Assembly (NCBI GenBank): GCA_031213475.1
Contig: JARUPZ010000006.1
Coordinates: 2,075,501-2,139,500, forward strand
DNA length: 64,000 bases
Direction: 5' to 3'
DNA from: Nereocystis luetkeana
Taxonomy: Eukaryota; Sar; Phaeophyceae; Laminariales; Laminariaceae
Part shown: positions 1 through 64,000 of the stretch, piece by piece
How positions within the stretch are numbered: position 1 is the first letter of the stretch
Layout: each line of letters starts with the position of its first letter
Notes under the pieces: generated by a model
The model's database searches: none
Told to the model about the DNA's origin: nothing
The model's input: only the letters and a program-made list of their open reading frames with translations
Made by a program: the position numbers and the translations under genes

Positions 1-203
1 TCTGCCTTTCCAACTGGCACTACGCTCTCGCTCTCAAGAAAGTGAACCCTCTCAGGCTTCATCGTCCTCCACGCCAAGAACCTGCCTGTGTTGTCTTCGT
101 CCACGTTCGGGCAAGAGGGGCCTGCTGTAAACACTTTGCGGTGAGACTAAAATATCATCCAGTATTTATTTACTGCTGTACGATATAAGTAGAATATAGA
201 CCA

Positions 204-223
204 GGTACCTGGTACCAGGTACC
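204..223. repeat. Perfect 20-bp GGTACC palindrome, unit 1
   Basis: The 20 bases from 204 are their own reverse complement and are built of overlapping GGTACC/CCAGG words. The words continue imperfectly to about 240. The element lies near the most conserved part of the unit. A related shorter form occurs near 32917-32932. Confidence 0.85.
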
Positions 224-567
224 CGGTACCAGGTACTCAGTTAATACCACTCCGTCTGGACATGTAAGGACAGTTTCGACAGGCATATTTACACTCAACG
301 TCCTTACAAGAATAGCGCCGTGTCACGATTATCAGCGAGTGCCTCGAGCTCTCGAGCTGTAGGCGTAAAACACTTTCTTTACCTGAAGTAGTAGTATTCT
401 TCTGAAGCCACGCGACCGACGATGTGCAGCAACGAGCGGAAACTGTCCTCGCGTGTGTGTCCGTGGTGTGTCGCGTGGTTGTGTCATCTTCCTGAGTCTC
501 GTGTTGCCTCTCGACTCCAGATTATCGTTGCTTCCACAAATGCTTGGTGTGAAGTGCTGTGCCGCTC

Positions 568-750
568 TTATCGCGATGATTCTGTAGTTTCACTGATAAA
601 CACCCACAACAGCAGTACAGTACAGCAGTACCTTGCTTGCTCGGCCGCGCCGCCGATGAAGATATTGCCAGGCACCAGACAGATCGGATCACCGTACAGT
701 CCATCCATGTCGGTTTCAAGTATCTGCATCATCTGTGTCATCTGTACCAT
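568..750 (-). CDS. Hypothetical small protein or exon, unit 1
   Basis: This is a 60-codon open frame with its own ATG. The N-terminus is Met/Gln-rich, followed by a Gly/Ala-rich part and a hydrophobic stretch (residues 42-52). The frame is also open in unit 3 (62761-62943) with one replacement, but not in unit 2. A plus-strand frame (422-754) and another minus frame overlap it; I prefer this one on composition only. I do not recognise the product. Confidence 0.3.
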   Translation of the reverse strand: MVQMTQMMQILETDMDGLYGDPICLVPGNIFIGGAAEQARYCCTVLLLWVFISETTESSR

Positions 751-1031
751 CTAGACAGGTTTCCACGGGGCTCATCTACAGCCTAAAACATATGTTTACA
801 CGTCGCAGTAGTGACCTTCAGGGTGTACTCTAAACATTGATATTGAATAGTCAGGTTATCATGCGTGCGGGCCCGGCTTTGTAAGCATATCGTACAGTAG
901 CAGTACGCTGATCTGGTACGATCTGTGTGATGGATACATGTTTCCACGTGATGATGTGCGAGACATACCCAGTATCTGCGGAATACATGCCATCGGAATA
1001 CATGTCATACGTCCCAGCGAAGTGATTTGTT

Positions 1032-1226
1032 TTATCTAATGGTCGATGAGAAAATGAGCGGGATAATAAAAATCGATTCGGCACGTTTTGCGAGTAGCTT
1101 AGTGTCCTTCCTTGCAACTTTCATACACCCGTCCGCGAGACCGCCTAGTACAGAAGTTTTTCGCTGTATCCCCACTCCCCACATCACGATATTTTGCAGA
1201 TATGCCAGAGCAGATATGTTCATGAG
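1032..1226 (-). CDS. Candidate terminal exon, membrane-like, unit 1
   Basis: The exon follows a good acceptor (a pyrimidine-rich run then CAG, cut at 1226/1227) in phase 0 and reads 64 codons to a stop. It encodes a mixed hydrophobic/basic protein part with a hydrophobic C-terminal segment (IFIIPLIFSS). In unit 2 the left inversion breakpoint falls inside it, so it is split there. In unit 3 a TA-rich length change alters the frame. Likely the end of the same minus-strand gene as the exon at 1488-1823; no family recognised. Confidence 0.42.
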   Translation of the reverse strand, partial: LMNISALAYLQNIVMWGVGIQRKTSVLGGLADGCMKVARKDTKLLAKRAESIFIIPLIFSSTIR

Positions 1227-1937
1227 CTGTAAGGCCAACCCAATGTTGCCGGGTTCACCGTAGGGCGGTATGATTCGAATGTATGTACAAGTATTACTAA
1301 AGTAGCTAGTAGTTCCTCGGTTGGATCTTTGCTACACCTTACAGTCCTTATTGTTCTGTCAACATATACCCAGCGCAATATTTTATTATGTCAGCGATGT
1401 GAAAGTAATGTGCTGTAGATGATACACCCCATTTAGTAGATCGTGATCTGGCCTGCATGTATGCGTAGTTTGATTTTCTCTCTTCTTTCAAACTTTATGG
1501 GAAGAGGAGCGCCTGGAAAGGAGCATTATGAGGATGCGACGTGTTATCTTCTCGGCGGCTACCGGTGTTATTCTCTTCGGCGTGGGGCCTACCACATCGA
1601 CTCCTGCCGCTTCGTGGGAAAAAGCAAACCACACGTGAGTAACCTGCCCGAGTTCGTCAATTTCACGTTTCTTTGAAAAACGAAAGAGTTGTTCAAGTGT
1701 GCGCGTAGTACCTGGGATGACAAACACTGTGAATCGTATGGCATGTTGTGCACTGACTAAGTCTGCAATAATGCCAATAGCTGATAACGTGCGAGAAACG
1801 TAGATTTCATACATTGGACACATAGCCGATCCCCACCTTGTGATCTACTGTATAGGTCTTTAGAGGGGGGTAAATGCCTGATCTCTACGCACTGTATGAC
1901 CTTCCGAATTGGTGGGTGGGAGCCGCACAGTCTACAG
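1126..1937 (+). other. Segment that is inverted in unit 2 (reference orientation)
   Basis: This ~812-bp stretch is found reverse-complemented at 34830-35645. Unit 3 has it in this orientation, so unit 2 carries the rearranged form. It holds the 111-codon exon and part of the 1032-1226 exon. Confidence 0.9.
1488..1823 (-). CDS. Candidate exon, 111 codons, unit 1
   Basis: This frame is open in all three units and reads like protein throughout: a hydrophobic start, then a charged middle (FRFSKKREIDELGQ), then HVWFAFSHEAAGVDVVGPT and a basic tail. The frame opens just after a TAG that could serve as an acceptor, so the ATG at 1823 may be internal. It is on the plus strand in unit 2 because of the inversion. 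By eye about ten differences between units 1 and 2 change amino acids and one is silent, so no constraint between these copies is evident. Function unknown. Confidence 0.5.
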   Translation of the reverse strand: MCPMYEIYVSRTLSAIGIIADLVSAQHAIRFTVFVIPGTTRTLEQLFRFSKKREIDELGQVTHVWFAFSHEAAGVDVVGPTPKRITPVAAEKITRRILIMLLSRRSSSHKV

Positions 1938-3140
1938 GATCTAGGTGTCTTTTCTCTGGGCTGGATATATACTAAAATATCAAGATCTCACACAACATGA
2001 CATAATGTCAGGTGACGATTAATTAGTGTTAACAAATGATCTGCAGTAGTAAAGCACACTGTGACCTATCCGGCGCAAGGAAACCCAATGTAACAATATC
2101 GCCAGGCGGCATCACCCCGTTACCATCACTCTGCTACCGTCACCACCACCCTGCCACCGTTACCATCATTATGTCACCGTGACCCAGTCAACATCACTCC
2201 GCTACATTCCCTTCATCATCGTCACCTCTTCGGCACCACGTAACCCTGTTGCCGCCATGCTGTCACGGCATCAGCGTCATCGTGCCGCACAGTATCGATT
2301 GACCGTAGCGAACCACGGAACGGAACTAACTGGCCGAATCTGGATCCGAGTCCAAACCAGTAGCTCTGTGCTTTCACGAAAGATACGCACCGCCTGAACC
2401 ACCTTGCGCAGCTATTAACGACGGAATGCTAACTCTCGCACGGATGATACTGACAGGCTTGAAAATCATGACATCGAGGAATAGGCTTCGCCCTTTATCT
2501 ACTGTAGTTCTTGCAATATCGGCATGCCTGGTCTAAAGGAGGACTGGGGTTTCGCACTGTACCTGCAGTACTCTGGCCCCGATCATTCCACACGCAGCCG
2601 AAATGTTCAGCTTAGAACTCGCTACTGTGCAGCGGTAATACCCACGCGGATAGATCAGACTGCCCCTTCTTGATCAACAGTATATATCTTCCGAGGAAGA
2701 CAGCTCCCTGCTCTATGCCATCATTGCACGATATAGCGCGCGAGCACCGGGGTATGTCTGCACAAGCTGGCGCCTACACACGGGAGGAGTCGTACGGTCT
2801 GCACGATCTAGATTTTGATTGGGAGAGGGGGGGGGGGTGTACGATTAAGATCAACATCCCGCACACCATTTATCCAATTTAAGAGCCCTACGATACAACC
2901 CTCACGTACATGTTTGTCGGGGCGACAGGCGTGTGATACCACTCCTGCGTACATACCAGTACCTGCCTGGCGGTTTGGTCTAATACGACAGCATCTGGAC
3001 ATTAAGTTGTGCATGGGTAATCTGCTGTAGACACATCGGAAGTAGATATCCGCTTTACGGACTCTTTCTATTGTACTAACCTGCTTGTCCATGATAGCAC
3101 TCACGACGCGTTGAAACCAGCCCAAGAGCTTGTATCACAC
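1938..3140. other. Largely non-coding stretch with a CACC minisatellite
   Basis: No convincing exon over most of this stretch. From about 2107 to 2215 it holds a degenerate minisatellite of ACCGTCAC/ACCATCAC words. A possible minus-strand exon end lies near 3082-3125 (a good CAG|GTTAGT donor at 3081). A run of ten or more G lies near 2827. The unit 2 counterpart is 35646-36840. Confidence 0.5.
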
Positions 3141-3172
3141 GCACAGCTCAACCATGGTCCCTACACCACACC

Positions 3173-3355
3173 TTGGTGAATCGCAAGGTAGCACGAGCAC
3201 GCGCTCGTTTAACATTACATGACGTCGGGAGGGAAATGCTCCAATATCTGGTAGAACTGCAGCCAGCCGCGTATCGTTCTACGCCGCATCCAGACCGTGG
3301 ATTAAACTGTGGACCCGAGAGTTTTCTTCTAATGTTACGAGTGCGCATGAGTTGA
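3173..3355 (+). CDS. Candidate exon, basic N-terminus, unit 1
   Basis: This is a 60-codon open frame with protein-like composition: Arg/Ala-rich start, then REMLQYLVELQPAAY, then a Pro/Asp/Cys part. It is conserved in unit 2 (36871-37053) with about five replacements. An upstream Kozak-like ACCATGG at 3152 could begin the gene in another frame through splicing. An overlapping minus frame is also open. Unknown function. Confidence 0.35.
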   Translation: MVNRKVARARARLTLHDVGREMLQYLVELQPAAYRSTPHPDRGLNCGPESFLLMLRVRMS

Positions 3356-3522
3356 TGGGAAGTATATTGTGCATTGTGCAGGCACGAGAGGGACATTCAT
3401 AACGTTTACAGTTCTGGGTTATTTTTAGCTGGCTTAGTTTGCCCTGTGACAATAGGCATCCCACTGTACTGCTACACAGCATACCACTGTAGTAGTCGCT
3501 ACTGGAGAAGAGCCTAAATTCG

Positions 3523-3909
3523 TTGGATGAACACGACAACGTCCCGCAGAACCTGCTGGGTTTCTACGGTTGTGTATCGTCTATCCTACTATCAATACCT
3601 GACTCACACGCCTTCTGCTTTGTGGAGGCTGTGCGAACATCACGCACATTCCATTTGCCCATCATCGTACACTTTCTGACGACATGGCACATGTATCGGC
3701 ACTGGCCTTTTGAAGACCCCCTGCAAGCACCTCCTGACACGCGTATTGTGGATTGTATATGGTATCGTTTGTCCGAGTCGAGGGAGAGACAGACACTTCT
3801 CGCCACGAACAGATGCATGGATAGCAGCCTCCTGCGAGTTCTTCTCAGTATCCCACCGCCATTTGTTTCCCTGGCTCTCTTTCTCCCTGTTCCCAAGGTT
3901 CCTAACTAA
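3523..3909 (+). CDS. Competing 128-codon frame, unit 1
   Basis: This open plus-strand frame overlaps the tail of the preceding minus frame. It is protein-like (hydrophobic and His/Trp-bearing segments) and is longer in unit 2 (37220-37672, 150 codons). However all eleven differences I counted between the units change amino acids. Only one of the two overlapping frames is likely real; I cannot decide which. Confidence 0.28.
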   Translation: MDEHDNVPQNLLGFYGCVSSILLSIPDSHAFCFVEAVRTSRTFHLPIIVHFLTTWHMYRHWPFEDPLQAPPDTRIVDCIWYRLSESRERQTLLATNRCMDSSLLRVLLSIPPPFVSLALFLPVPKVPN

Positions 3910-4223
3910 CAGCACCAACCGTAGAGGTGTCTCTGTAAGGTATGCTGTGGTTCCATTCCACTCCCCCAGATCGTAATGTCCAACTGCAAAAAAACGGAAC
4001 CATGGAGCATACGTAACCCCGGCTATCTGGAAGTGTTCCCCCTCAAACGAAAAGAGGGTAGAAGGGATGGAAAGGAATTCGCGCTCACAAACGTCGATTG
4101 GTTGAGTAACCCTTGGTAGGGCTGATCTCGAATGCTGTCTATCCATGCGTAGGTGATGAACGATGAACACGATGACACTAACAAATCTGGGACGATGCGC
4201 CCTTTCATGTACACGCCCCCCAA
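3640..4223 (-). pseudogene. Hypothetical gene, frame not continuous, unit 1
   Basis: This is the unit 1 counterpart of the 176-codon frame at 37390-37920. The credible part is the first ~90 codons (a run like SFEGEHFQIAGVTYAPWFRF). Here that part lies in two different frames because of a one-base length difference near 4151 relative to unit 2. The tail (below ~3960) lies in low-confidence sequence that also holds an open plus-strand frame. Unknown function; it lies just downstream of gene D in the same direction. Confidence 0.4.
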
Positions 4224-4540
4224 TACATCCCGCCAGTCACTACACCATCAGTCGCCGCGCTTGTCACTAACCAATCTCGCTCGTCGTCCATTGCACGCCT
4301 CGTTGTTATGTCAAAACTTCTTCGTCATGCATATCTTCGCCGTGCTTAAACTGAATCCTTGACAAGAATGCCCAGGCAAAGAGGGTTTATGGCAGGAAAC
4401 ACGAACGAAATCTTCGCCTCAGTCGACAACACGTGGGCAAGAACAACTCCGACCCCGTCTTCTACTACTACTGTTTCCGAGTATCACCAATTCGTGCTTG
4501 TCGGCATTCAAGGAGGGACCGCCAATGATCAGGGGAAACG

Positions 4541-5156
4541 TCAGCGATGCACCGACCTGAAACACGTCTGGAACCTACCGCTCATACAGGTCAAGATATC
4601 AACTAACGCCGCCATGTAATTATAAAGATATAGTATAGGTGTCGAAAGGAACTCGCTCAGAAATATGTTTGAAACTGTCGTCAGAATGTGTGGGTTGGTG
4701 GAAGGTTCCACGAAAGTGATCAGAATTTCATCGTAGAGTTCGGCGATCGTGCATAATATTGAAAACCAAGTGAAAAACACCCTCAGTCAGCCAGCCTGCC
4801 AGAGACAAAGGAACCCCTGTGAGTGCGGTCGGTCCCCTGCCGATCCAAAACTTGCATTCGCTGGAAATAATGTTTCGTCTTGGAAGTTGAGGATATCGCG
4901 TCGCTGTGGGTTCTGGTTGGCTGGAATCATTAAAAAAATAGTCGTATCGCAGTTGGAGAAACAGATCGTGGTGGGGGATTTGACCTTGAACATCGTTAAA
5001 AACAAATAGATCGCTTGAGTTTTGCCCGTTGATCAGGGTTATTTCTGTTTCCTTGTGATAATGGTTTCCCGGGTGTGGATCGTATGAGATTCTTGAAGAT
5101 GACCTGGTCATAATATTTGTCGATTTGGTTCGCCGATTGGCCCTGAGCGTTTTCAT
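4541..5156 (-). CDS. Gene D: two-exon hypothetical protein, unit 1
   Basis: Exon 1 is 5156-4781 (ATG, 125 codons plus one base) and exon 2 is 4674-4541 (two bases plus 44 codons ending TGA). The 106-nt intron starts GTG and ends CAG, and phases match, giving 169 aa. Residues 1-20 are basic; the middle is polar with a His-Tyr-rich part (PGNHYHKETEITLINGQ), then hydrophobic and aromatic segments near the C-terminus. The same model holds in unit 2 with no break. It is divergent from gene A, with only 80 bp between the two start codons, suggesting a shared promoter. Without the intron the two halves lie in different frames. No family recognised. Confidence 0.6.
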
Positions 5157-5236
5157 TTATGTTTTCTTAACGTATCGCGTGGATTACAAATGATACTTTA
5201 GTGATATATTAGTCGGTTACTGACCTGTTCACGGCG
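5157..5236. promoter_or_regulatory. 80-bp space between divergent genes D and A, unit 1
   Basis: The ATGs of gene D (minus) and gene A (plus) face away from each other across 80 bp of A/T-rich sequence (with GATATATT near the middle). A bidirectional promoter is the simple reading; no canonical TATA box is clear. Unit 2 keeps the same spacing (38853-38932). Confidence 0.35.
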
Positions 5237-6385
5237 ATGCCGCCCCAGGTGTTACCGGGGTTCTCGCTCGACGTCGACGTTGAACAAGACCATAGCGAAA
5301 GAGGGCGGTGGACAAGATTTGCGTGGGAGCCACCTATACCACCAGACCAGTTCATGATAAAATTCTTGAATGTACTCCTCTACGTGTTCTACATCATCCG
5401 CTCGAACCACTTTCATGCCTTCCTGTTCGGGAGGAGACATCGCCGCCGCCGCTACTACATCAACCCCAACAGCACGAGAGGTCGCCGTTATCGCAGGATT
5501 TCGCGGGCAAAGGCCGACATGTCCCGGAGTCTGCGCAGCTTCTGGGCGCAGGTTCAGGCTGTTCCATCGTCCCCTGCAGCGAAGAGAAAAGCGCTTAGGG
5601 CGACCGACAGACCCATTCCTGCGAGGGCTAGTCTACAGGCGGCTGCTCCTACAGCCCGGCTACCCCTCGTGTCGCCACCTGTGCTGTCGACCCCGTTGGA
5701 GGTAGAGGGTCTGGCGGCTGCGTCGCCTTCCCTGAGCCTTGTTTGCCAGGTCGTTGCTACCGTCTCACCGTGGCCCCTTCACCACTCGACGACGCCGCTA
5801 TGGATGCCCGATGCAGCAGTGACTGGCTCACTGTGTGCCGACAAGACGTGGTTGAGTGTGCCGCCACAAACCGTCGCCGTGGCTGAACTGTGCCGGTCCG
5901 GCCGTGTCGTGACTGCGGGTGCGTGGAATTGTGCTATCCAGCCTGGCGTGGACGGACTGTGGATTGTGGGAAGAGGAACCAATATTCACTCCCGACCTGG
6001 TTATATCAAGGTGAATCGCCCCCCGTTTGATCCGCGTGGAAGCATGCATGTGTGCAAAGGGAACACCCAGCCGTCGCCACGGTCTCAGCGTGCGCGGTAA
6101 CGCCCTCAAGGCACGAGAGGATGTCACCAGCGGCCCCCGGCAGTGTCCCTACGGGCATAGTACGTGCACAGCCTGCTGCTGTAGGCATTGGTGAAACGTA
6201 GAGTGACTACGCCAAACGATATCAACGTCGCGAAATATAATTCTCGGGCTGTCACGCCGTGTGTGTCGAGCGAATACACTGTCCGAACTCACGAAACATT
6301 TACAACTAGTGTTCCTGAGGTGCTGCACTGCCCTTCAACGACGAATGTGTATAATACAGTGCAATCGACAGAGGTTGGTGTATAG
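5237..6385 (+). CDS. Gene A: Arg-rich domain protein, paralogue of gene B, unit 1
   Basis: An ATG at 5237 opens a 287-codon frame (to 6100). Residues ~23-110 hold a domain shared with gene B: RWTRF then PPDQF, a hydrophobic helix (LNVLLYVFYIIRSNHFHAFLFGR), an Arg-rich block (RRHRRRRYY...RGRRYRRISR) and a helix starting near SRSLRSFWAQV. The first codons also align (M-x-P-Q-V in both). The rest is Pro/Ala/Ser/Val-rich without the 56-aa repeats of gene B. Possible splice: AAG|GTGAAT at 6010 to TAG|GCA at 6185 would swap the last 29 codons for a 66-codon exon (NDINVAKYNSRAVTPC...), giving 324 aa. Nuclear or nucleic-acid binding is an inference from the Arg block only. Confidence 0.62.
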
Positions 6386-6622
6386 CAGATGATCATACCG
6401 GCGGCCGAGTCGATCAGCGTCATGTATACTCCAACAAACACCCTGTAGCACCCCACGCACACCCCGTCCCGACTCCACTTTCTTATCGGTTAGTGAGAGC
6501 CACTTCGGCGATCCTTATCGTCCTTTGGCGATGATGGGCTTGCATATATCGATGTGTATGTTATGAAAACCGGAGCCCATCCGCTCTGGCACCAACGCTT
6601 GAACGTATGGTTTAATTGCTAG

Positions 6623-6911
6623 CTCCCTCCTCCAAGTGACCCCTCGCCTGTTTGACGACGATGCCGTAAACCAGGAATCCGACGCTATGCTCACGGACTC
6701 ACTGCATGCCCGGGATTCGCCGGGTCTGGCACAATGCCCCACAGTGATTGACTGGACCCAGTCGGGCGGCATCTCGCGAAAGGATAGCTGCTCGAGTGAC
6801 GCTGTTCGAGCTTATATGGCTTGGTCGCTATTTGTCTCTTGCATGAAACGAGTGGATGCAATGTGCAGTATGGTGCCGACCGTCGCGCTAAACCCCGACA
6901 GCGGCTATCAG
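6623..6911 (+). CDS. Candidate internal exon, unit 1
   Basis: It is bounded by TAG at 6620-6622 and a strong CAG|GTAGGT donor at 6912. After one leading base it reads 96 codons, acidic then mixed (RLFDDDAVNQESDAM..., ending NPDSGYQ). Its end phase (0) fits the next exon at 7509. Of eight differences from unit 2 that I scored, four are silent, which supports coding on this strand over the open minus frame opposite. Confidence 0.5.
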
Positions 6912-7508
6912 GTAGGTCGGCTTGTGTTCGACTCACGCGATATGTGGACACATATACGATAGGGGTTCTGCCTGCGAGTAACTTTATTGGTTAAGCCCGC
7001 TATCATGCAACGTGTGTTGTCCCTCTGCCACTCGCGGGAATAGGCTATGGCATCAGTGTCTTGAGCACGTTGATTGTGTTATCATCGTGGTAGTGCAGAA
7101 CTGACTGCAGTGATCCCGATGATGCGACCACATGGCTATATCTTCTGTATCACTTACCCTCGAATAAAAGTATTCATGGTGCCGACCTCGGTACATTAAC
7201 CGTGCCAGCACATGAAACATTACAAGTTGCAGGCTGCCGCACTTCCCGCCACGAATATCGAACGACCATCGTTTGTGTTTGTGTACGCAACAAGAGTCCG
7301 TCGGTTTGGCAAAGACAAGGAACTCTTACTTGAATCATTCAAATCTTGGATCAGTTCCATGTTACTTGCATGATATCCCTGACAACATGTTATACCGCGC
7401 GTCGATGTCGTTGGAGCGATTCCATTGAGGTTGGCAATGCGTAGTAGCGTGGGAAACATAAACGGAAAACGCAGAGCCACTGCCGTTACTCGCCTCCCGT
7501 AATCTCAG
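6912..7508. other. Long intron or spacer, unit 1
   Basis: Sequence between a strong donor at 6912 and a CAG acceptor at 7508. About 205 bp of it (near 6918-7122) has no counterpart in unit 2. A minus frame (7220-7480) is open but has no splice support. No further feature seen. Confidence 0.4.
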
Positions 7509-8348
7509 AATGCTAAAAGAAGTGTATTTGACGTGACTCTTGACCAATTACGCGAGGTGTTTCCTCCCTGTGATGTGTACCAGGCCGGCGGCCTTCCCAA
7601 CCTTCCATCGGTCTTGATTGTTGCTCTGCGACCTTTGTCGATCGTCAAGATGCATGCGCACGACAACCACCGACTCACGAATACGCACACATTGTTTATG
7701 GCTTTTTCACTGCTTGACGCCCACGCTTCGATGAGTACCGTCGAACGGTTCTCCTTGTCCCAACACAATATGATCTTGTCTTCTTGTGCGTTGGGCCTTT
7801 CGACCATACCGTCCGACCCCTGGCGTATACGTATGTAGGGTGTGTGCATTCAGCAGCAGGTGATGATTTACATCGCGGACGGGATCACGACTTGCTTTGA
7901 TCAGGTCGGCGGGCACGCGTCCATCTTTTGTGGCGGCCTCGTCATCGGCCACCAGGCTTCGGCATCTTCGCTGGCATGGCCGGTTGTCCCGTCAGTTTTC
8001 CTGCGTACATCGAATCCCGCTATTGAAGAATGGGGGCTTGTCACTCACTTCGAAAACGTCGTGGGGCCATGCCCCCTTGCGCGTGTGGCGCGAACGCTGC
8101 ACGGAGGGCCCGAGGTGGTGGTGATTTCAGCACTGGATGCCTCGGCTTGGTCGTCCCAACCACAAACCTTCACCCTGTTGGACGAGACCCAGTCCGACAG
8201 CAGGACCCTGGCCAGAGATGGATGGAAGGGCGCCATACAAACCGGGTTTAGTAGGTGGTCTGCCGCCCGTCCCATGGAGCTGGTAGACTTGCGTTGGAGT
8301 ATGGCGAAATCCGTCACACCACGTCGCTCGTGCAATGGCAATGACCAG
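7509..8348 (+). CDS. Candidate exon with one in-frame TAG, unit 1
   Basis: The frame opens in phase 0 after TCTCAG and closes in phase 0 at a CAG|GTAGGT donor (8349). Within it one TAG (7836-7838) divides a 109-codon and a 169-codon part; the same TAG occurs in unit 2. The second part is clearly protein-like (GGHASIFCGGLVIGHQ; PEVVVISALDASAW), so either the TAG belongs to a tiny intron (a CATTCAG lies at 7847-7853) or the gene ends there and a new exon begins. Two indels near 7613-7690 shift and then restore the frame relative to unit 2. Sequence style suggests a secreted or surface protein; family unknown. Confidence 0.5.
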
Positions 8349-8609
8349 GTAGGTCAGCCGTTTTTATTCGTGCGATAAATTGTGTATCGGTACGGCTGAC
8401 TTGTACATTTGTAATCGCCGTCATCACGCTCAGCCGATGTCGACAAAACCAATATTAGCAGGCAGCGAAAGTCTTGGTGCAGAGCGTGTGCGAGGGCTGA
8501 ACTGACAAACTTCCTCCCATCGCTGCAGCCCCGAATCACCTACAGATAGCTACGTTTCCACGTCATGTTGAGCGTTGTTCTGCAGTGGCTCACCTCTTCA
8601 TTACAATAG

Positions 8610-8885
8610 GTCGACCCCCTGGACGACCGGTTGTACGTGAAACCCCAAGAGCATGCCTTGTTGTTTTTCGATTACCCAACGACCATCTTATATACCAGTA
8701 CGATATATACGCGTGTATGGCCATCACCCCACACTTGCACCGAAGGATTGTACAGTACGTTCATATCCTGCACTCGACGGATTTGTCTTACTCCAGAATA
8801 CTACAGTACTTATCTTTCCAACGGCGCTCGACCCCTGTGTTATGATTTGCTGGCTATCGTCAATGCCGCACGACTGCTTCAATAA
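8610..8885 (+). CDS. Candidate exon, Tyr/Cys-rich, unit 1
   Basis: The exon opens in phase 0 after ACAATAG and reads 91 codons to TAA: DDRLYVKPQEHALLFFDY, then a Tyr/Thr/Ser/Cys-rich part typical of extracellular segments. Its start phase fits the donor at 8349. A second frame (from a CTGCAG acceptor at 8584) is also open. In unit 2 the 65-bp insertion at 42159 interrupts it. Confidence 0.42.
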   Translation, partial: VDPLDDRLYVKPQEHALLFFDYPTTILYTSTIYTRVWPSPHTCTEGLYSTFISCTRRICLTPEYYSTYLSNGARPLCYDLLAIVNAARLLQ

Positions 8886-8897
8886 CGTTCATGCAGG

Positions 8898-9319
8898 GCG
8901 CACGGAATCAGGCAAGCCAGAACACGCAGGGGGGGGACGCTGCTACGTCCGAGGAGCGCGATCGGCACCAATCAATGTCATTGGCCTACTTCATGGAGAC
9001 CTACCCCGTTGTGGTTTCCGTGCTCGCTTTGTTGCTTTATGTCTCTGCGGTTCGGTTGCAGGGCCTATTTCTTTAATCGTTGACCAACATGTGCGCGTCA
9101 AGACTGTTGTTCATGTCGGGGTTGCATATCGTGTACGATGCTGTAGCCTCTATACGGCATCAACAGATCGGGGTTAGTGATGATCCTTGTAGTCTGCAGG
9201 ACCGATCGTGTTTGCAGATGACCTGCCCACTACAACACACCACACCACACCACACCTTGGGTTATATGCTTACTGCCAGTGGTACGGGATACCACAAGGG
9301 CGCTGGAGGGCGACGTTGA
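8898..9319 (+). CDS. Two overlapping candidate exons, unit 1
   Basis: After TGCAG at 8897 one frame gives 59 codons ending in a likely transmembrane helix (YPVVVSVLALLLYVSAVRLQG, stop at 9076). A second frame gives a Cys-rich chain (CYVRGARSAPINV..., CLCGSVAGP) that, in unit 2, stays open to the counterpart of 9319. G-run length differences (8 G here, 10 G in unit 2) switch which frame follows. A membrane anchor and an alternative Cys-rich tail are both possible; I cannot choose. Confidence 0.4.
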
Positions 9320-9756
9320 TCCTACTGTAGGCAATCCATACATAGAGCGTTGTTCAGCATCGTAACGTACACTTCGCATTTCAATTAACACCGGTGGCGC
9401 ATACGGTTGATCTAACGGACGCGTCAGACGTGAAGGCTGGCCATGAACCCCGTCAAGTAAATCTTGGACAGAGTGAGCGCTGGGAACTGGCAAGTCATGT
9501 ATAAGAGCCAAGAGATAGGGACAGGGGGGTACCCTCAAGATTTGGAGGGATTTCCCCCCGTTTCGCGAAGGGCGTTAGTCCCTCAAGCGTCAAGTGTAAG
9601 ACAGTGTGGATGCTACAACTATAGGTCGGTTCAAGTAGAACATCATTGAATGCCGACTGGTGGAGAAACATACGTGTCATATTATTGTTAAATACATTGC
9701 CTCTCGGGGGTGTTTAACCGTGGGTGCTACTACCATCAGGTGACGGGCTTCACTAG

Positions 9757-10034: not shown

Positions 10035-10253
10035 GACTGAAGAGTAGGCTCGTAGAGCGGGTTCGGGCTACACTCTTGTCGGGAGGAAACTCTCGCGGCT
10101 CACGCACATCTTGGTACAAGATGCCCACACTATGCATGTTGGAGCTCCGACCTCCAGGTTGTTTGATAGGCACACTCTCCTAGCGCAAAGTCGCACCAAT
10201 TGAACTCGGGCATGTACCGTGGACACTACTGTAGTCCTCGACCGTATCGATAG

Positions 10254-54179: not shown

Positions 54180-54273
54180 TAATAGCTACTCCAATGCCAT
54201 AAAGTAGGCATCATGCTGATCCCCATGAACAGCAGAAGTGTTTGTGATACGCAGTCCCTTCGTTACGGCCTAG

Positions 54274-54643: not shown

Positions 54644-54849
54644 TCTGAAACTTAGATCATATACTAAGTATCGAATTACTAGTAAACGGCAATTACGTAC
54701 GCAAAACACGTTTCGGATATTGTTTTCCGCACTAAATACCAGCGCGATTCCAGTACAATTTGTGCAATGCATCTATTACAGATCTATTGCTGCAGTATGG
54801 AACTCGGATGTATGAAAAAAAAACACACCTTGGACAACGTGACACTAAA

Positions 54850-55500
54850 CGTTCTATGTTAATGTTACGCGCCAGCAAAAACAAACACGTAACATTTCGT
54901 TAATGCGTTAATTACTTTCTGCATTTTCTGACCACATACATAGGGTTAGTGCGTTGTGATATTTGCGGGCGATATCCTAGTGTTATGTTCAAGTGTTGCC
55001 TTGATCCCGTACTGGCCGCAGTGGGTGTTACGATGTTAGGGTAGGCATCGCATAGCAAGTAACACGATGTTAGCGTGTTAGCGAATTTCCTTGTCGCTAT
55101 CGTAACGCACGTTGAAGGGATAACGTAGACGGCCAATTAAACGTTAACATTATGCCATCGCGATAGCGATATCAGCCCGTAGCGAGTAACGTTATGTTAG
55201 TGTGTTAGCGGGATTGTTACTTGCTACCGTAATACCCTGTAGACGGATAACGTACACGGCCAAATAAACACGTACCCAACATCACCATGATAGGGTATTA
55301 TATAGTGAAATACCTTGTGGCTATCGTAGCAAACGTTAGAGATATGACGTAGATGGTCAATACAACGTTAACATTGTGCTACCGTATCATTCGCAGGAGC
55401 GGTCCGTATCGAGCAACGTTATTTGAGGGTGTTAACGGAAGGCTTGCTCCCAATAACATACATCAAACGAATTACGTATACGAGTTATGATCAAATACAC
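54850..55500 (+). repeat. TAACGTTA-rich degenerate tandem repeat, unit 2
   Basis: Same repeat as 26330-26995 with a few point changes and small indels. Confidence 0.7.
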
Positions 55501-55591
55501 ATTAGCATCATATTAATGTTTAGGCCTTGTATGCAATGTATGTAGTGAGGGTGTGTCTCAACCCCCCCCAGAGAGCATTGGAACGGATCGA

Positions 55592-55963
55592 ATGGAATAT
55601 TATTTGCCGCATGAATTGGTGTTGATGGGTTGTGGGAAACGAATAGATTCCGTGCAGCCCGAGAAAAACAGTATATATATATCTAAGAAGAGGAAGAAGA
55701 AGTGTTGCACCCACTTTTCTTGTTTGGAAGGACCGAACGGCCCTATCGAACGGGAACAAATAACAGATTATTTGATGTAGATGGACACTACCGAAGATGG
55801 ATGCGGACACCAAATCTTCTTTGTCATGTGCAAAGGATACCGTTCGTCCCGATTCGGCTGGCGAGGCCCGGGATTCTGCATGAATGACCACGAAGAGCCT
55901 CGTTCCGTTCCGCTCGTTCCATGCTCTTTAGTGGGAGTTGAGTTAAGACATACCCTGACACAA
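55592..55963 (+). CDS. Candidate exons, in-frame TAG or acceptor, unit 2
   Basis: The ATG at 55592 opens 62 codons with a Lys-rich middle (SKKRKKKCCTHFSC) up to a TAG at 55778-55780, and the same frame continues as the 61-codon segment 55781-55963 ending CAA|GTAAGC. Single gene with the TAG inside a short intron, or two exons, are both possible. Confidence 0.5.
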
Positions 55964-56477
55964 GTAAGCAGATAACGTACACCCCCACTTTATCATCAAC
56001 AATATGTTACCGCCCTATTAGCTCGTATGTGCGAGTATGCCGACTACGTTTTAGATAGATAACGTAGGTTACGGTACAGATGAATAACGTGCTGTGATGT
56101 AGATGGATAACGGGAGGTGTGAAAAAACACGGGACAGTTGACGCCAGCCATCTTATAAACAAAATGGATGAAATAACGCGAACGACGGGAGCCATCCTCC
56201 AATAAAATCGCTGTATTATCGGGAATCACGTCGCACACGAACAAGGTGAAGAAAGACACAGCTCGCTGCTCGCACACCCACAGTCACGCGACGATTGACC
56301 TTCGATCTCGACATGTAATCCACCCATGGTCAACGAGCTTCGTGCCGGGCAAGGCTAATGAGTGATAATTATGGCCTCGGAGGTATCATTGGTATCCGTG
56401 GTCTAGGGGGCGAGAGGTTGGCCGCGGCGTCCTACGCTCTTCGTCAAAACTTTCAAAAAGTTCTGTTTTATGCCAAC

Positions 56478-56912
56478 GGAGAGGAATCGAGAGTTTTTAT
56501 CGTCTGAATTCCACACACCAGCTGCCAAATCTGTTTTAAGCAGACGCCTGGCCCACCCACGCCACATATCACCGGCCGAAGTGTGAGAACTGTGACACTA
56601 GTGTGAATCAGAGCCTCTAATGAGCGCGCTTCATTCAGAGTTCGTGGCGTAATCGTTGGGTGTGTCGATCAATGGCAAACCTGAAAAATGGTCGATATCT
56701 TGGCATCGGAGAGGGGTCGAGATTTTTTTGTCGTCTGTCTTATACAGACCAGCGCCAAATGTTATTTTATCAGACGCCTGGTCAGCCCACGCCACATATC
56801 GCCGACCGAAGTGTGAGCACTGTGACACTAGGGTGGATCGGAGACCTTCACGAGCGCATTACGTTCAGATTTCAGGACGGTGTCGTTGGTTTTTGTCGAT
56901 CGATGTCTGTCA
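56478..56912 (+). repeat. Imperfect 233-bp direct duplication, unit 2
   Basis: Same duplication as in unit 1; copy starts at 56478 and 56708. The duplication therefore predates the unit duplication. Confidence 0.8.
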
Positions 56913-57053
56913 AGGACTCCCATAAAAGTTGGTTTATATAATGTGTCAATGGGAATGACTCTAGTGCCTTCCAGAACAACAGGGGTTTTATATACATTAC
57001 ACGGCGCGCAATTCAAGCCTGCGTGAGCTGTCCTGTGACGTTAAAAAATTGCC

Positions 57054-57350
57054 ATGGATAACGTACTGGTGCGGTTCCCAGAAAATCATGAGGCGTTTTT
57101 TTGCGGGGATCCCTCATCAACATCCCCTGTTTAGGGGGTTGAAAATATGGAGGCGTTTTTCGAGAATGCCATGCTATCTTCCGCTCCGGGAATATTTTTT
57201 AAGGTATCCCCTACTGGAATGTCGGCTAAATTGGATAACACGGCTACGTTACGTTACTGCCACACGCCGCTTTTTGAAGGGATCACGTATGGGCCGGCTA
57301 AAACTGCAACGTATCTAACGTACGTTAAGAGTTACGTTATCCGAGCCTAA
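57054..57350 (+). CDS. Two adjacent short ORFs, unit 2
   Basis: Counterpart of 28535-28831; one silent and two replacement changes in the longer frame. Confidence 0.4.
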
Positions 57351-57929
57351 GGCAATTGGATGGGGGGTCCAAATGAGGTGGTGTTAGTAGTGCTGGCGAG
57401 TATGGTAACCTTCTTTTAGGGTGTTATGTGTAACACTCCTCCTAAGGGTAACAAGATGGTGGTGTGTTATGTCTTACGTAGCGTAGACAGTAACATTATG
57501 TTATCGTGTTTGTAAAGACGCGAATATCGATCAAGGCAAGTTAAGCGTGTGCACGCTCGTGAGTTTCCAGGTGACACTGCGTTGCCGCGTTAGCGTGATC
57601 GCTCCTCCAGTGCTAAGACTATGTAACTGCGTTTGAACGTACCCGTGTTAGGCGTAGATAAGTTTTACCCGAGGCGTGAAGAAACCGCGACAGGCATTGG
57701 TACGAGTAACACCTACAGGTGTAACATACGAATCCTTTTTGTTTTGTTTGCCTTATACGGACAACACTCCACACATACATCGGACGGGCCATGCTCTTTC
57801 TATTTTTTGTACCTACTGTAGCTCGTACAGACCAGTGTGTTATGTCATGTGTAGGCGTGTAAGTCATGTATATTCTCCATACTATCCCGCGGAAAAGTGT
57901 ACAGATCAAACAGATCCACAAGGATAGAC

Positions 57930-60420
57930 CTGCGCGGATTGTATGAGATCAGAGTACAACATGCTAACAAACCCCGGCAGACGGAGCACTTTTAATAACA
58001 TACCCACCCTCTTAGATTGCTACCACCGCGGGAACCCATCCAGATCATTCAGATCGTTCAGACGAGCCCGGCATAATCCTGCACATGCCTCGTTTGATCC
58101 AGATCCGATACATAAGATATGTGTGTTGCGAACAGATACTATTATATTGTCCGTCGAATACTTACGACGGTCCACACATTATTGGAGAGATCCCGATCCA
58201 TACATAAACAAATTAGTTCCTACAGTTTTCGTGTCTTACTCATACGAGCTATCTTCACTGTGTGCACATATTGTGCACGTAAACCAGGAATCTGTCTGCC
58301 CCGAAACGTTCAGATCATGAAGAGAGGATCGATAATCTGTCCGATACAGCATGTGAACGTTCCACACCTCGGACACGTCAGATCCCCTTTAGATTATTAA
58401 ATGTATACAAATAGGTACGATTGATAAGCACGATCCGCGGGATCTACATCATTGTTGCTTTGTCGGGATCAATATTTTACTGATGGGATTTGTATGATCA
58501 ATATCTTACACTACCAGGGTACACATTACACACGTTTTTCCTAGCATGATCCGCATGCGTTGGATGTCGTTCACTTTGTGGGATCTGTATGACCTGCATC
58601 ATCTGTTAATTGCTCGCGGGTGATTGTACACCAGTCAGTGCCTGTTAAACATGCCTACTACAGCAACTCACCCGCATTGTATACACATCGGAACCGTTCG
58701 GTACAGGCTGGGAGCTACGTTAGGGACATGGCAGCTCACCGAGCAAGGTGGTTGCAGCCACCCATTCTGCTCCCCTTCACAAGTAGACTACATACCATGT
58801 CACCTCGAGCGTCAAGCATCGCGGGTATCGAGGGCAGCAGCAGCAGCAGCAGCTCTTCTAGTGGCTCTGCGGTTGCAGATGACCTCGGGTGGGGCCAAAC
58901 CAGCATATATATATATATCCTGTAGAGCAGTCTAGGCTGGTCTACTGTGGTCGCGTAGGATATGCCGACAATGCTGTTAGCAGAGTCTAGGTGGGTGTTG
59001 TACTTTCGCTTTACCTTTAAGATTGCCACTCAAGTAGTGGCACCACTCTCGCGAAGTGGGAATTATACGTGTTGGGTGGAAACGACAATGACCTCTACAA
59101 AGTGCTGATTTTGTTGGGCTTTGGTTGTGTTGGAGTTTCCAAGAAGGATATTCTCCTGAGTTTTATCTTATAGCAACACGCTGCCGCCATTCATCTTACA
59201 ACCTACCGGTACGAGGCAAGAGCATATTACGTACTCGACATATCTACGGACGGGGTGAGTGCATTACGGAGGGCTTTGAAACGCACAACTCTAATTTTCA
59301 GCGTGTAAGCTGTAAGATCGTACTGGTACTTGTTTTTGCACACACGATTGCTCGGGTCAAACCTGCACGATCTATATAGCTCTTGCACTCACAAGGTGAG
59401 ATCTGCGTGATCTAGTTCATCATCATACGTTTTTGTTTTGTTTTCTAGTGTGCGTGATCCGTATGGTGATCCGTATGGTTCCCAGGAGCTGAATCAGGTT
59501 TGCTCCAAGGGAACTATACGATATACACTTGATTTTACGCACGCGTTAACCTGGGTGGGTTGTGGCTGACCTGCATGATCTGCCCATATTTGCCGAGTGT
59601 GATTCGTATGATCTGTGTGATCTAGACAATGCCTACCTGGTGAGTACTGTACGGTCTAAATCTTATATACACTTTTTGTCTTTGGTGGGATCTGTGTTAC
59701 TTGCATGATCCGCATTTTTTTTCGCCATGTATGTGGGGCTTGTATGATCTGCGTAATCTAGACAACATTCACCTGAGGATATCTGTACAATCTAGATGTT
59801 ATACCCAACATTTCCAAATCGGCCAAGGTCTAGATCACTCAAATATATTTCGGTTAATATCGGTATGTTATGCGTAAGATCTGGTGTCCACAGATATCTA
59901 CGGGTAAGTATGCAACAGATCGGCAGTTCACACAGAATCTAGATCCCGTCCGGCAAAATATGCGAATATCACGCAGATCATGCAGAATCTGATCCCACCG
60001 GGGCAAACGTGTGGGTCAGATCTAGATCAAACAATTCCTATCAGGTACGCATTGCCTAATGCAGATCGCTTAGATCATCCAGATGGCACCGATGCAAACG
60101 CCTGAATACCTTGATAATCATACACATCATACTCACACTAAAATGGACCGGTATGTAAGAGCTGGGTCATTCAGATCCCACTACTGTACAACAGTGGGTC
60201 TCCCATGTGCGGAAAATCTGATCATACAGATATCTGATTGCGGGTAAGAGTTGCCACTACTCTAGATTGTACATATCCCACACAGCGACCATGATCTAGA
60301 CCCCGCAGGTCACATTTGAACAGGGGTGTATCTACCCATCCATCCAGAAGGGCCTACCTCATGCAGCGCAGGTCTGACTTGTCTGACTTGTGGAATGTTT
60401 AAATCTCAAGCCAACCTGAA
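57930..60420 (+). repeat. GATC-rich degenerate repeat tract, unit 2
   Basis: Same tract as in unit 1, ~99% alike, with small length changes in TA and CAG runs. Confidence 0.6.
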
Positions 60421-60683
60421 GTTGAAATACAGCAGTCAGCTAAGCTCACTCACGTGTCATTCGCCTGGTCGCCTGATGTACCAGACGTTGATGTGGTGAG
60501 TACCGTCCCGAGGAGGAAGAGCAGTACCGAGGAAGACGCCGACTTTGGTGCTTTCATAAACCTCATGACACCTTCGTTCCAGAAAAACACACAACAAAAA
60601 ATGGCATGTTAGATACCAGATTCTGGTATATTTATGGGAAGACTATTAATAATATGATGCAGATGATCCGAACAGCGGGACAG

Positions 60684-60691
60684 TATAAATA
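60684..60691 (+). promoter_or_regulatory. TATA-box-like element, unit 2
   Basis: Same element and flanks as 32192-32199. Confidence 0.3.
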
Positions 60692-62396
60692 TACGCATGC
60701 CCGAGAGTACGAGAGCGTGAGTCGGCAAAATTCAATGCAAATCGAGCTGTGCAGTGGAGTGCGAGCGCTGAATTGAGCCCACTGCCCAATCCAAACGAAA
60801 GCACGCAGACAAGAAACGATACCTACTACCTATGACCTGTGACTACAGCAGTGCGGCTTGTACAGGACGCCGCTGAGGGTGCTGAAAGCAGATCGTCCCA
60901 CGTTTTTCACGAGCTGCGAGCTGACAGCGCTGGACAGTTAGCGTTGGTTTACAAACAATCGTGCTTAAGAAAAAAAAAAACTAAACTGCTCGTGTGGCCG
61001 GCGAAAGAGAGATAAAACCAATCGTATTAAGTATATTTGACCCTCCTTAGGTATACGGACACCCATATATATTTTGTATTAATTGCATGGAGAGAGAAAT
61101 TGCTACCATCCAGTAGGCGAAACGTGCCTCAATCCTATTTTTTCGTTCTTTTCCACGGCCAAGCGCGGGATAATTTAGGTGCCAAACTACTACTACTGCT
61201 GAAAACTATCCGGCGCGGGGAGAGCGGCAACGTCAGACATCAGACAGGGGTGGGAACGATACTGAGGGTCTGACTGAGATGGGCGGCGACATCATGACGA
61301 GACGACCAGCACACAGAACAGGCTGACAACAATTTTTGGAAAGACACCCATAAATAATACCGGTATTGCGGTGTGTGTTGTGTGATACTGATACCAGATA
61401 CCAGGTGAAATAAATACACGGCAGCTACAGCCGGAGCAATCCGGAACAACTTGCCGCGCTGTTCTAGGTGCGCCTCTACAATACTCACGTGGGTTCGTCT
61501 ATACAGCACGTGCTCAAAAACACACTGCGAGACGGCACAACCGCGAACGAACAAGAACGAGCTAGAGGAGTGTACACATCGCTCTTGGGACGGCGGGACG
61601 TTTGGCGGCAAATCTCATTCCGTGTATTATTGCTGATATTCTCACCTGTTTGAAGTCTGTCCGAAGTCGCAGCGTGTCGTCGAGGAAGACGGGGGGCGTA
61701 AAGCGCGGGCTGGTGCCAAGATCTTGAGGCCGGTCGCACAGTCAAAGGGTCACAGATCCAACGGAGTCACTCGTTGGGAAATAGAGGGCAGATGATGGGC
61801 TTGAACTTTCTCGTGAACACCGAATCGAACGAAGACGGGTTTTTGTTGTGAGTGCGGTTGTGGTTGTGAGGTTGTGAGGAAGGTGGGAGGTGCCTTGGGT
61901 TTGCTGAACCAGCGCGCCGGGACTGTCACCTTCTCGCTTACAGTCGGGACTGTCACCCTTTCGCTACATAATACCTGGTAAGAACTTGCCGAGGCTCTTC
62001 CTGCTTTGAGGATCTGCCGAGTACTTGGCGGATTGACGAGGATGCTCCGCCTGTTTTTGAAAGCTTGCATTCAAGATTCGGCGTTTTTTTGTAAGGGGGA
62101 CCCGGCTCGGCAATAATAATCAAAGTTACGCCGCACATCCAACCTCGCTCGCTCGCCGGCCCGCCCACCAGAAGCACGAGAAACCGATATTGATCTGCCT
62201 TTCCAACTGGCATTACGCTCTCGCTCTCAAGAAAGTGAGCCCTCTCAGGCTTCATCGTCCTCTACGCCAAGAACCTGCCTGTGTTGTCTTCGTCCACGTT
62301 CGAGCAAGAGGGGCCTGCTGTAAACACTTTGCGGTGAGACTAAAATATCATCCAGTATTTATTTACTGCTGTACGATATAAGTAGAATATAGACCA

Positions 62397-62416
62397 GGTA
62401 CCTGGTACCAGGTACC
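62397..62416. repeat. Perfect 20-bp GGTACC palindrome, unit 3
   Basis: This is the third copy of the palindrome, again without a change, embedded in a GGTACC-rich stretch. Confidence 0.85.
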
Positions 62417-62760
62417 CGGTACCAGGTACTCAGTTAATACCACTCCGTCTGGACATGTAAGGACAGTTTCGACAGGCATATTTACACTCAACGTCCTGAC
62501 AATAATAGCGCCGTGTCACGATTATCAGCGAGTGCCTCGAGCTCTCGAGATGTAGGCGTAAAACACTTTCTTTACCTGAAGTAGTAGTATTCTTCTGAAG
62601 CCACGCGACCGACGATGTGCAGCAACGAGCGGAAACTGTCCTCGCGTGTGTGTCCGTGGTGTGTCGCGTGGTTGTGTCATCTTCCTGAGTCTCGTGTTGC
62701 CTCTCGACTCCAGATTGTCGTTGCTTCCACAAATGCTTGGTGTGAAGTGCTGTGCCGCTC

Positions 62761-62943
62761 TTATCGCGATGATTCTGTAGTTTCACTGATAAACACCCAC
62801 AACAGCAGTACAGTACAGCAGTACCTCGCTTGCTCGGCCGCGCCGCCGATGAAGATATTGCCAGGCACCAGACAGATCGGATCACCGTACAGTCCATCCA
62901 TGTCGGTTTCAAGTTTCTGCATCATCTGTGTCATCTGTACCAT
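62761..62943 (-). CDS. Hypothetical small protein, unit 3 copy
   Basis: This is the unit 3 counterpart of the 568-750 frame: same length and start, with one amino-acid change near residue 11. No recognised domain. Confidence 0.3.
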   Translation of the reverse strand: MVQMTQMMQKLETDMDGLYGDPICLVPGNIFIGGAAEQARYCCTVLLLWVFISETTESSR

Positions 62944-63686
62944 CTAGACCGGTTTCCACGGGGCTCATCTACAGCCTAAAACATATGTTTACACGTCGCA
63001 GTAGTGACCTTCAGGGTGTACTCTAAACATTGATATTGAATAGTCAGGTTATCATGCGTGCGGGCCCGGCTTTGTAAGCATATCGTACAGTAGCAGTCCG
63101 CTGATCTGGTACGATCTGTGTGATGGATACATGTTTCCACGTGATGATGTGCGAGACATACCCAGTATCTGCGGAATACATGCCATCGGAATAAATGTCA
63201 TACGTCCCAACGAAGTGATTTGTTTTATCTAATGGTCGATGAGAAAATGAGCGGGATAATAAAAATCGATTCGGCACGTTCTGCGAGTAGCTTAGTGTCC
63301 TTCCTTGCAACTTTCATACACCCGTCCGCGAGACCGCCTAGTACAGAAGTTTTTCGCTGTATCCCCACTCCCCACATCACGATATTTTGCAGATATATAT
63401 GCCAGAGCAGATATGTTCATGAGCTGTAAGGCCAACCCAATGTTGCCGGGTTCACCGTAGGGCGGTATGATTCGAATGTATGTACAAGTATTACTAAAGT
63501 AGCTAGTAGTTCCTCGGTTGGATCTTTGCTATACCTTACAGTCCTTATTGTTCTGTCAACATATACCCAGCGCAATATTTTATTATGTCAGCGATGTGAA
63601 AGTAATGTGCTGTAGATGACACACCCCATTTAGTAGATCGTGATCTGGCCTGCATGTATGCGTAGTTTAAAATTTTCTCTCTTCTT

Positions 63687-64000
63687 TCAAACTTTATTGG
63701 AAGAGGAGCGCCTCGAAAGGAGCATTATGAGGATGCGACGTGTTATCTTCTCGGCGGCTACCGGTGTTCTTCTCTTCGGTGTGGGGCCTACCACATCGAC
63801 TCCTGCCGCTTCGTGGGAAAAAACAAACCACACGTGAGTAAGCTGCCGGAGTTCGTCAATTTCACGTTTCGTTGAAAAACGAAAGACTTGTTCAAGTGTG
63901 CACGTAGTACCTGGGATGACAAACACTGTGAATCGTATGGCATGTTGTGCACTGACTAAGTCTGTAACAATGCCAATAGCTGATAACGTGCTAGAAACGT
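63687..64000 (-). CDS. Same exon, unit 3, cut by window end
   Basis: The frame is open from the stop at 63687 to the edge of the window and matches the unit 1 and 2 copies. Its orientation is as in unit 1. Confidence 0.5.
   Translation of the reverse strand, partial: VSSTLSAIGIVTDLVSAQHAIRFTVFVIPGTTCTLEQVFRFSTKREIDELRQLTHVWFVFSHEAAGVDVVGPTPKRRTPVAAEKITRRILIMLLSRRSSSNKV

What the first reader, a model, noticed from the sequence alone, without database searches (positions are those of the whole stretch)
1..64000. Head-to-tail array of a ~28.5-kb, gene-rich unit with no recognisable mobility or rDNA genes
Positions 1, 33708 and 62194 start the same colinear sequence. A multi-gene unit this large repeated head to tail is unusual: it is not rDNA, histone or any standard element I can name, and the proteins match no family known to me. 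It could be an amplified locus, the concatemer of a circular molecule, or a giant element.
Basis: partly seen in the sequence, partly recalled or inferred. Interest (0 to 1): 0.85.

Follow-up and report, generated by a model that had tools for sequence, protein, structure and literature searches.

The report
Giant gene-bearing tandem array, brown alga
One chromosome of what is almost certainly a brown alga carries about nineteen head-to-tail copies of a roughly 31-kb block holding two related genes of unknown function, and exchange between copies appears to keep them alike while a repeat inside one of the genes keeps changing in number.

Summary
The repeat is real and larger than reported. Window positions 1, 33708 and 62194 start the same unit (91.8-98.0% identical). 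In the window's own 465-Mb genome it continues as 18 units counted by exon E1 plus a partial one, head to tail, over about 0.59 Mb of the 13.4-Mb contig C6. Diverged, partly inverted, mostly broken copies lie beyond the ends. The host is almost certainly a brown alga (TTAGGG telomere, light-harvesting and EsV-1-7 genes). The unit is not gene-rich: two convergent genes are supported, A (+, three exons found) and B (-, one long exon), paralogues sharing an Arg-rich N-domain and a C-module. Their exons show constraint (pooled dN/dS 0.60, p=0.0003, 0 nonsense variants against 7.6 expected), though the N-end of B alone does not (0.94). B holds 56-aa repeats in a 1002-bp in-frame block present about one to six times per unit, which explains most of 33.7 against 28.5 kb. 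Best reading: a coding macrosatellite kept alike by unequal crossing-over and gene conversion, decaying at its edges. Circular concatemer, allele join or mobile element is not supported. Protein function is unknown.

The parts
1..33707 (+). Unit 1 of the array in the window (C6:2075501-2109207), 33,707 bp
   Evidence: Self-BLAST; unit map
33708..62193 (+). Unit 2 (C6:2109208-2137693), 28,486 bp; reference unit of the analysis
   Evidence: Self-BLAST; unit map
62194..64000 (+). Start of the next unit, which continues beyond the window
   Evidence: 98.0% identical to 1-1801; continues in L016-L018
5237..6010 (+). Gene A exon E1, unit 1 (N-domain plus C-module); the exon may really begin after the CAG at 5248
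   Evidence: donor mapped from unit 2
38933..39706 (+). Gene A exon E1, unit 2; donor AAG|GTGAAT at 39706/39707
   Evidence: dN/dS 0.58, p=0.033; donor in 6 of 6 other copies covered
6623..6911 (+). Gene A exon E2, unit 1 (C-module); start uncertain
   Evidence: Profile match; tblastn
40319..40607 (+). Gene A exon E2, unit 2 (C-module); start uncertain, acceptor at 40319 (5 of 6 copies) or 40371 (6 of 6, phase 0)
   Evidence: dN/dS 0.47, p=0.047; GT donor in 5 of 6 other copies covered, GC in one
7839..8348 (+). Gene A exon E3, unit 1 (linker plus C-module)
41315..41824 (+). Gene A exon E3, unit 2; donor CAG|GTAGGT; several possible acceptors (41315, 41330, 41333, 41336)
   Evidence: dN/dS 0.55, p=0.038; donor in 7 of 7 other copies; acceptors; relatives on C3
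17339..24610 (-). Gene B long exon, unit 1: N-domain, 38 monomers of 53-57 aa (six 334-aa blocks plus two), C-module
50873..53146 (-). Gene B long exon, unit 2: N-domain, 8 monomers, C-module, donor CAG|GTGAGG; probably begins after the CAG at 53135 rather than at the ATG at 53146
   Evidence: C-end dN/dS 0.46, p=0.029, N-end 0.94, p=0.49
51146..52480 (-). Monomer array inside gene B, unit 2 (8 monomers of about 56 aa)
   Evidence: alignment
34830..35640 (.). About 0.8 kb inverted in unit 2 relative to 6 of 6 other copies covering it; no inverted repeats found at its ends

Best explanation
A coding macrosatellite: one chromosomal locus of a brown alga amplified into about 19 head-to-tail units of about 31 kb, each carrying two convergent, paralogous, probably multi-exon genes of a family not found in the libraries searched. 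SHOWN: the array, its place, orientation and divergence; pooled constraint on the exons of the two genes; the in-frame block repeat; the mosaic pattern and the broken edge copies. INFERRED: unequal crossing-over between sister chromatids or homologues, with gene conversion, adds, removes and homogenises units; the same kind of exchange on a smaller scale adds or removes 1002-bp (334-aa) blocks in gene B without breaking its frame; copies at the edges escape exchange and decay; the genes stay open because their products are needed, perhaps in high dose or in many length variants. From composition alone I guess that the products are Arg-rich, nucleic-acid- or membrane-associated proteins with a variable Pro/Ala-rich repeat stalk.
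For: 18 plus-strand E1 copies, spacing 28.3-41.6 kb, mean 31.5; 19 gene B copies, 19 of 19 without a stop, in frames of 783-2545 codons. A 1.5-kb spacer probe matches C6 only, apart from two matches of 42 and 60 bp. The nearest unit changes along the length of each of the 8 copies compared. Copies at C6 2.08, 2.34 and 2.43 Mb are 99.5-99.9% identical over about 4 kb at two places, while other pairs of those sets are at 96.8-97.8%; copies at 2.04 and 2.54 Mb share one small inversion. Edge copies: E1 free of stops in 1 of 4 against 17 of 18 inside; gene B whole and free of stops in 1 of 5 against 19 of 19. Pooled exon dN/dS 0.60, p=0.0003, 0 nonsense against 7.6 expected; other two frames 1.26 and 1.19 with 13 and 6 nonsense.
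Against: No expression data. Each exon alone reaches only p=0.03-0.05, and the gene B N-end shows none (0.94, p=0.49). In the first blind scan of 290 open segments E1 and E3 ranked 6th and 7th, behind five segments without other support, so the scan alone would not have picked them. The gene B repeat region looks near neutral (monomers 0.70 in frame against 0.76-0.97 in other frames). First exons and gene ends were not found. Copy-number variation among individuals could not be tested. Only 7 of the other copies, whole or partial, were compared base by base.
Confidence: 0.75

Rival explanations
1. A neutral or selfish satellite: the unit spreads and is homogenised by exchange, and its open frames are relics of a decaying orphan family, carried along rather than selected.
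For: Most of the unit is not coding by the tests used. Gene B N-end dN/dS is 0.94 and its repeats are near neutral. Homogenisation alone keeps copies similar. No expression data.
Against: Pooled exons have dN/dS 0.60 and no nonsense variant against 7.6 expected, while control frames have the expected number or more. Gene B is open in 19 of 19 central copies and its length changes go by in-frame blocks. E1 relatives on C3 and C11 stay open, with dN/dS of about 0.5-0.65 against C6 and each other across chromosomes.
Confidence: 0.17
2. A mobile or viral entity: concatemer of a circular molecule, a giant transposon or an integrated virus.
For: Large head-to-tail repeat with proteins unknown to the libraries; an endogenous viral element is known in Ectocarpus (PMC11541908, passage seen).
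Against: No mobility, capsid or replication domain above cut-off in the window ORFs scanned, none in PHROGs for three proteins; no relative of two proteins in IMG/VR. Splice-donor-like exon ends. Diverged relatives form small clusters in both orientations on other chromosomes. Units are diverged, not identical.
Confidence: 0.04
3. An assembly artefact: two alleles or collapsed reads joined head to tail.
For: Reads were not available; tandem arrays are hard to assemble.
Against: About 19 units, each with its own differences, about 4% from unit 2 for the 7 compared; no N in the 259,500 bases held; one unit has its own retrotransposon insertion.
Confidence: 0.04

Closest known systems
Human coding macrosatellites (D4Z4/DUX4, CT47, PRR20/FLJ40296, RNU2)
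   Same: Large units in tandem at one or a few places, arrays up to hundreds of kb, in some cases one gene per unit; one (PRR20/FLJ40296) encodes a proline-rich protein (PMC3599962, passages).
   Different: Unit about 31 kb against 4.8 kb (CT47) and 6.1 kb (RNU2) in those passages; two convergent paralogous genes per unit; a coding block repeat nested inside one gene. Variation among individuals not tested here.
Alpha-satellite-like higher-order repeats (recalled, no call)
   Same: Diverged monomers grouped into a homogenised multi-monomer block (six monomers of 53-57 aa make 334 aa).
   Different: Here the monomers lie in an open reading frame inside one exon, and no centromere role was tested. 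Putative Ectocarpus centromeres are retrotransposon-rich and tandem repeats make up only 3.5% of them (PMC11541908, passages).
Ampliconic sex-chromosome gene arrays such as mouse Slx/Sly (recalled, no call)
   Same: Head-to-tail amplification of a multi-gene block with gene conversion.
   Different: Sex linkage of C6 and germline expression are untested; the gene families are unrelated as far as was searched.

Membership tests
Macrosatellite | Kilobase-scale units in a tandem array of hundreds of kb | tested here: met
   18 E1 copies, mean spacing 31.5 kb, about 0.59 Mb
Macrosatellite | Confined to one or a few chromosomal places | tested here: met
   A 1-kb and a 1.5-kb probe match C6 2.0-2.95 Mb, elsewhere only stretches under 100 bp
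Macrosatellite | Units kept alike by exchange | tested here: met
   Mosaic nearest neighbours, near-identical distant copies, broken edges
Macrosatellite | Copy number differs between individuals | not testable with these tools
   One assembly only
Macrosatellite, coding type | A gene in every unit | tested here: inconclusive
   Frames open in 17 of 18 (E1) and 19 of 19 (gene B) central copies and pooled constraint, but no transcript seen
rDNA or other RNA-gene array | Known RNA genes in the unit | tested here: not met
   No Rfam match at gathering score, no tRNA
Transposon, provirus or giant element | Mobility, capsid or replication genes | tested here: not met
   None above cut-off in the 20 window ORFs scanned with Pfam, nor in PHROGs for three of them; not every ORF was scanned
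Sex-linked ampliconic array | Lies on a sex chromosome, germline expression | not tested
   No sex-linkage or expression data at hand
Centromeric satellite | Lies at the functional centromere | not tested
   No centromere map of this genome was available

The most novel reading that the evidence does not exclude
A fast-changing protein locus of brown algae in which array exchange makes new variants at two nested scales, whole 31-kb units and 334-aa blocks inside gene B, used in a genetic conflict such as gamete recognition, virus resistance or biased transmission.
Probability: 0.15. Interest if true: 0.8.

Novelty: new variant of a known kind. Interest (0 to 1): 0.5.

Why it matters
Gene-bearing arrays with units this large are easily missed: the tandem-repeat search used for Ectocarpus was set to monomers of up to 2 kb (PMC11541908, passage). 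If the genes are expressed, this is a natural system in which both the number of gene copies and the number of repeats inside a protein vary by the same exchange process, in a lineage that evolved multicellularity on its own. It also defines a gene family that can now be looked for in other brown-algal genomes.

Tried and rejected
Assembly join of alleles: rejected, about 19 mosaic diverged units. Circular concatemer, provirus or transposon: no such domain above cut-off in the ORFs scanned, no relative in IMG/VR for the two proteins tried (in one search two stretches matched a pattern but neither was confirmed). rDNA or tRNA array: none. Other ORFs of the unit as genes: 12 of 12 tested have dN/dS 0.73-2.82; ten of them also have frame-breaking or other indels or nonsense variants, two (150 aa and 117 aa, both minus strand) have neither but no constraint. 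A fourth exon of gene A near 42089-42220 was considered: in many units only about its first 31 codons match and some copies have an extra stop, so it is left open. The query of E2 plus that exon found no relative on C3. AlphaFold2 of exon E1 (mean pLDDT 37) and of the C-module (34) is uninformative, so no fold search was run. Sequence search of the PDB gave nothing for gene A's ORF and one match at E=0.54 for gene B's, taken as chance. NCBIfam and PHROGs: nothing for three proteins. PADLOC was not searched. The SSU rRNA search failed twice with a machine error, so no species name was sought that way. Nine paper searches listed no report of this array or family among the hits shown; this covers one open-licence library and capped lists only.
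Full report
WHAT WAS CHECKED. Identity of the matching pieces is 91.8-98.0%. The units are unequal: unit 1 is 5.2 kb longer, mainly because the long minus-strand ORF has five more 1002-bp blocks.

WHERE IT LIES. The window is C6:2075501-2139500 of a 465,085,209-base genome in 1987 contigs. C6 (13,408,998 bases) and C1 (21,869,845 bases) begin with CCCTAA repeats, that is TTAGGG telomeres; these two ends are the only ones read. The genome has 68 matches to the light-harvesting family PF00504 and at least 150 to the EsV-1-7 motif PF19114 (150 scored of 1711 candidates, 0 of 14 control genomes). Ectocarpus telomeres are TTAGGG (PMC11541908, passages), and the EsV-1-7 family is expanded in brown algae (PMC7457493, one passage; the same passage says that the domain also occurs patchily elsewhere). 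So the host is almost certainly a brown alga; the species was not determined.

SIZE OF THE ARRAY. Exon E1 of gene A has 18 plus-strand copies from C6:2049283 to 2584285, spacing 28.3-41.6 kb, mean 31.5 kb. E2 has 18. E3 has 19, one of them split between frames. Gene B has 19 minus-strand copies. The 41.6-kb spacing holds an insertion of about 9.1 kb (2201585-2210712) with an integrase core domain (PF00665, E=9e-10) and 441-bp terminal repeats that are 100% identical, that is a recent retrotransposon. A 1.5-kb spacer probe matches C6 only, apart from two matches of 60 and 42 bp on C12 and C5. The tool warns that its counts are lower bounds.

WHAT IS IN A UNIT. Unit 2 was compared with seven other whole or partial copies, giving 2727 variants. 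Two genes are supported. Gene A on the plus strand: E1 38933-39706, E2 from about 40319 or 40371 to 40607, E3 from about 41315 to 41824. Gene B on the minus strand: one long exon, 53146 or 53134 down to 50873. They converge. They are paralogues: the N-terminal parts align, with an Arg-rich stretch, and a C-module of about 80 aa occurs four times per unit (end of E1, E2, E3 and the gene B exon). Each C-module ends at the same point in a donor-like AG|GT, kept in 6 of 6 other copies covered for E1, 5 of 6 for E2 (one has GC), 7 of 7 for E3 and 7 of 7 for gene B. The only nonsense variant of the gene B frame in these copies lies beyond the donor, at codon 780 against an exon of 758 codons. All four donors cut after a whole codon; the acceptors are not settled.

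CODING EVIDENCE AND ITS LIMITS. Per exon: E1 0.58 (p=0.033), E2 0.47 (p=0.047), E3 0.55 (p=0.038), gene B C-end 0.46 (p=0.029), gene B N-end 0.94 (p=0.49). Pooled: 0.60, p=0.0003, 0 nonsense variants against 7.6 expected; the same stretches in the two other frames of their strand give 1.26 and 1.19, with 13 and 6 nonsense variants. The exons were chosen by homology and open frame, but E1 and E3 had already been seen in a blind scan of 290 segments, where they ranked 6th and 7th behind segments without other support, so the pooled p is somewhat optimistic. E1 against its relatives on C3 and C11, and C3 against C11, has dN/dS of about 0.48-0.65; two C3 copies have 0.71 against each other. The gene B repeat region is near neutral (monomers 0.70 in frame, 0.76-0.97 in five other frames): there the frame is kept, the residues hardly. 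The ATG at 53146 is in unit 2 but not in 7 of 7 aligned copies, nor in 8 of the 9 other gene B loci looked at; the ninth did not match the search string. The others read CCCGCCCCAG and then GTG, which looks like a splice acceptor, and E1 of gene A has the similar GCCGCCCCAG|GTG, with an ATG just before it in the copies looked at. So upstream first exons are probably missing from this model.

REPEAT INSIDE A REPEAT. The gene B exon holds monomers of 53-57 aa. In unit 1 six of them (57, 56, 56, 56, 56, 53 aa) make a 334-aa, 1002-bp block; unit 2 has 8 monomers and unit 1 has 38. Over the 19 central copies the stop-to-stop frame runs from 783 to 2545 codons, in steps of roughly 334 with some spread from where the upstream stop lies, equal to about one to six blocks, and 19 of 19 have no stop inside the match.

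HOW IT EVOLVES. The closest copy changes along the length of each of the 8 copies compared. Copies at C6 2.08, 2.34 and 2.43 Mb are 99.5-99.9% identical over about 4 kb at two places, while the other pairs of those sets are at 96.8-97.8%. Copies at 2.04 and 2.54 Mb, 502 kb apart, share one small inversion. Beyond the ends the copies are mostly broken: E1 is free of stops in 1 of 4 edge copies against 17 of 18 inside. Gene B is whole and free of stops in 1 of 5 against 19 of 19; three of the five have stops, and the left one at 2.018 Mb is truncated, its only stop lying beyond the donor. This is what unequal crossing-over and gene conversion predict, namely a homogenised centre and decaying edges; the mechanism itself is inferred.

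RELATIVES. E1 relatives lie on C3 (5 copies, 21-23 kb apart, two plus then three minus), C11, C26 and C9. On C3, 5 of 5 have an E3 relative about 0.9 kb downstream on the same strand, at 34-36% identity. Further E3 relatives lie at C6 4.27 Mb and on C11. So the gene pair of exons is older than this array and forms small clusters elsewhere. Pfam, PHROGs, NCBIfam, PDB sequences and IMG/VR gave no relative beyond chance for the proteins tried. Structure models were too poor to use.

VERDICT. An amplified locus is supported; a circular concatemer or giant element is not; 'gene-rich' is overstated. It works like a coding macrosatellite, and differs from the ones read about here (PMC3599962, passages) in unit size, in carrying two convergent paralogues, and in the coding block repeat nested inside one of them. 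Copy-number variation, the trait that made macrosatellites known, was not testable. Function is unknown; an Arg-rich, repeat-stalked protein under dosage or length variation is a guess.

Noticed in passing
L022/L023 (C6:2201585-2210712): A retrotransposon of about 9.1 kb with an integrase core domain and 441-bp terminal repeats, 100% identical, sits in one unit of the array: a recent insertion.
   Followed up: partly
window 56477-56905: A 230-bp segment duplicated in tandem (1.9 copies, 78% matches) in the non-coding part of unit 2; the BLAST map shows the same cross-match in the other copies.
   Followed up: no
C6:2040396-2040619 and 2542474-2542697: The same segment of about 220 bp is inverted in two units 502 kb apart; a different segment of about 0.8 kb is inverted in window unit 2 (34830-35640). 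Small inversions recur in this array without obvious flanking inverted repeats in the one case looked at.
   Followed up: partly
C3:10660478-10751551: A second cluster of the same family: five copies 21-23 kb apart, two on plus and then three on minus, each with an E3 relative; a smaller, inverted relative of the window array.
   Followed up: partly
C32:5191488-5290931 and C31:3294234-4024918: Light-harvesting (PF00504) exon matches are clustered on C32 (about 100 kb) and spread over C31, with several identical scores, which suggests further tandem gene clusters in this genome.
   Followed up: no
L009 (C6:2010001-2016509): The left flank of the array is 60% GC and shares no match with the unit; its six-frame translation shows short repeated peptides of its own.
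   Followed up: no
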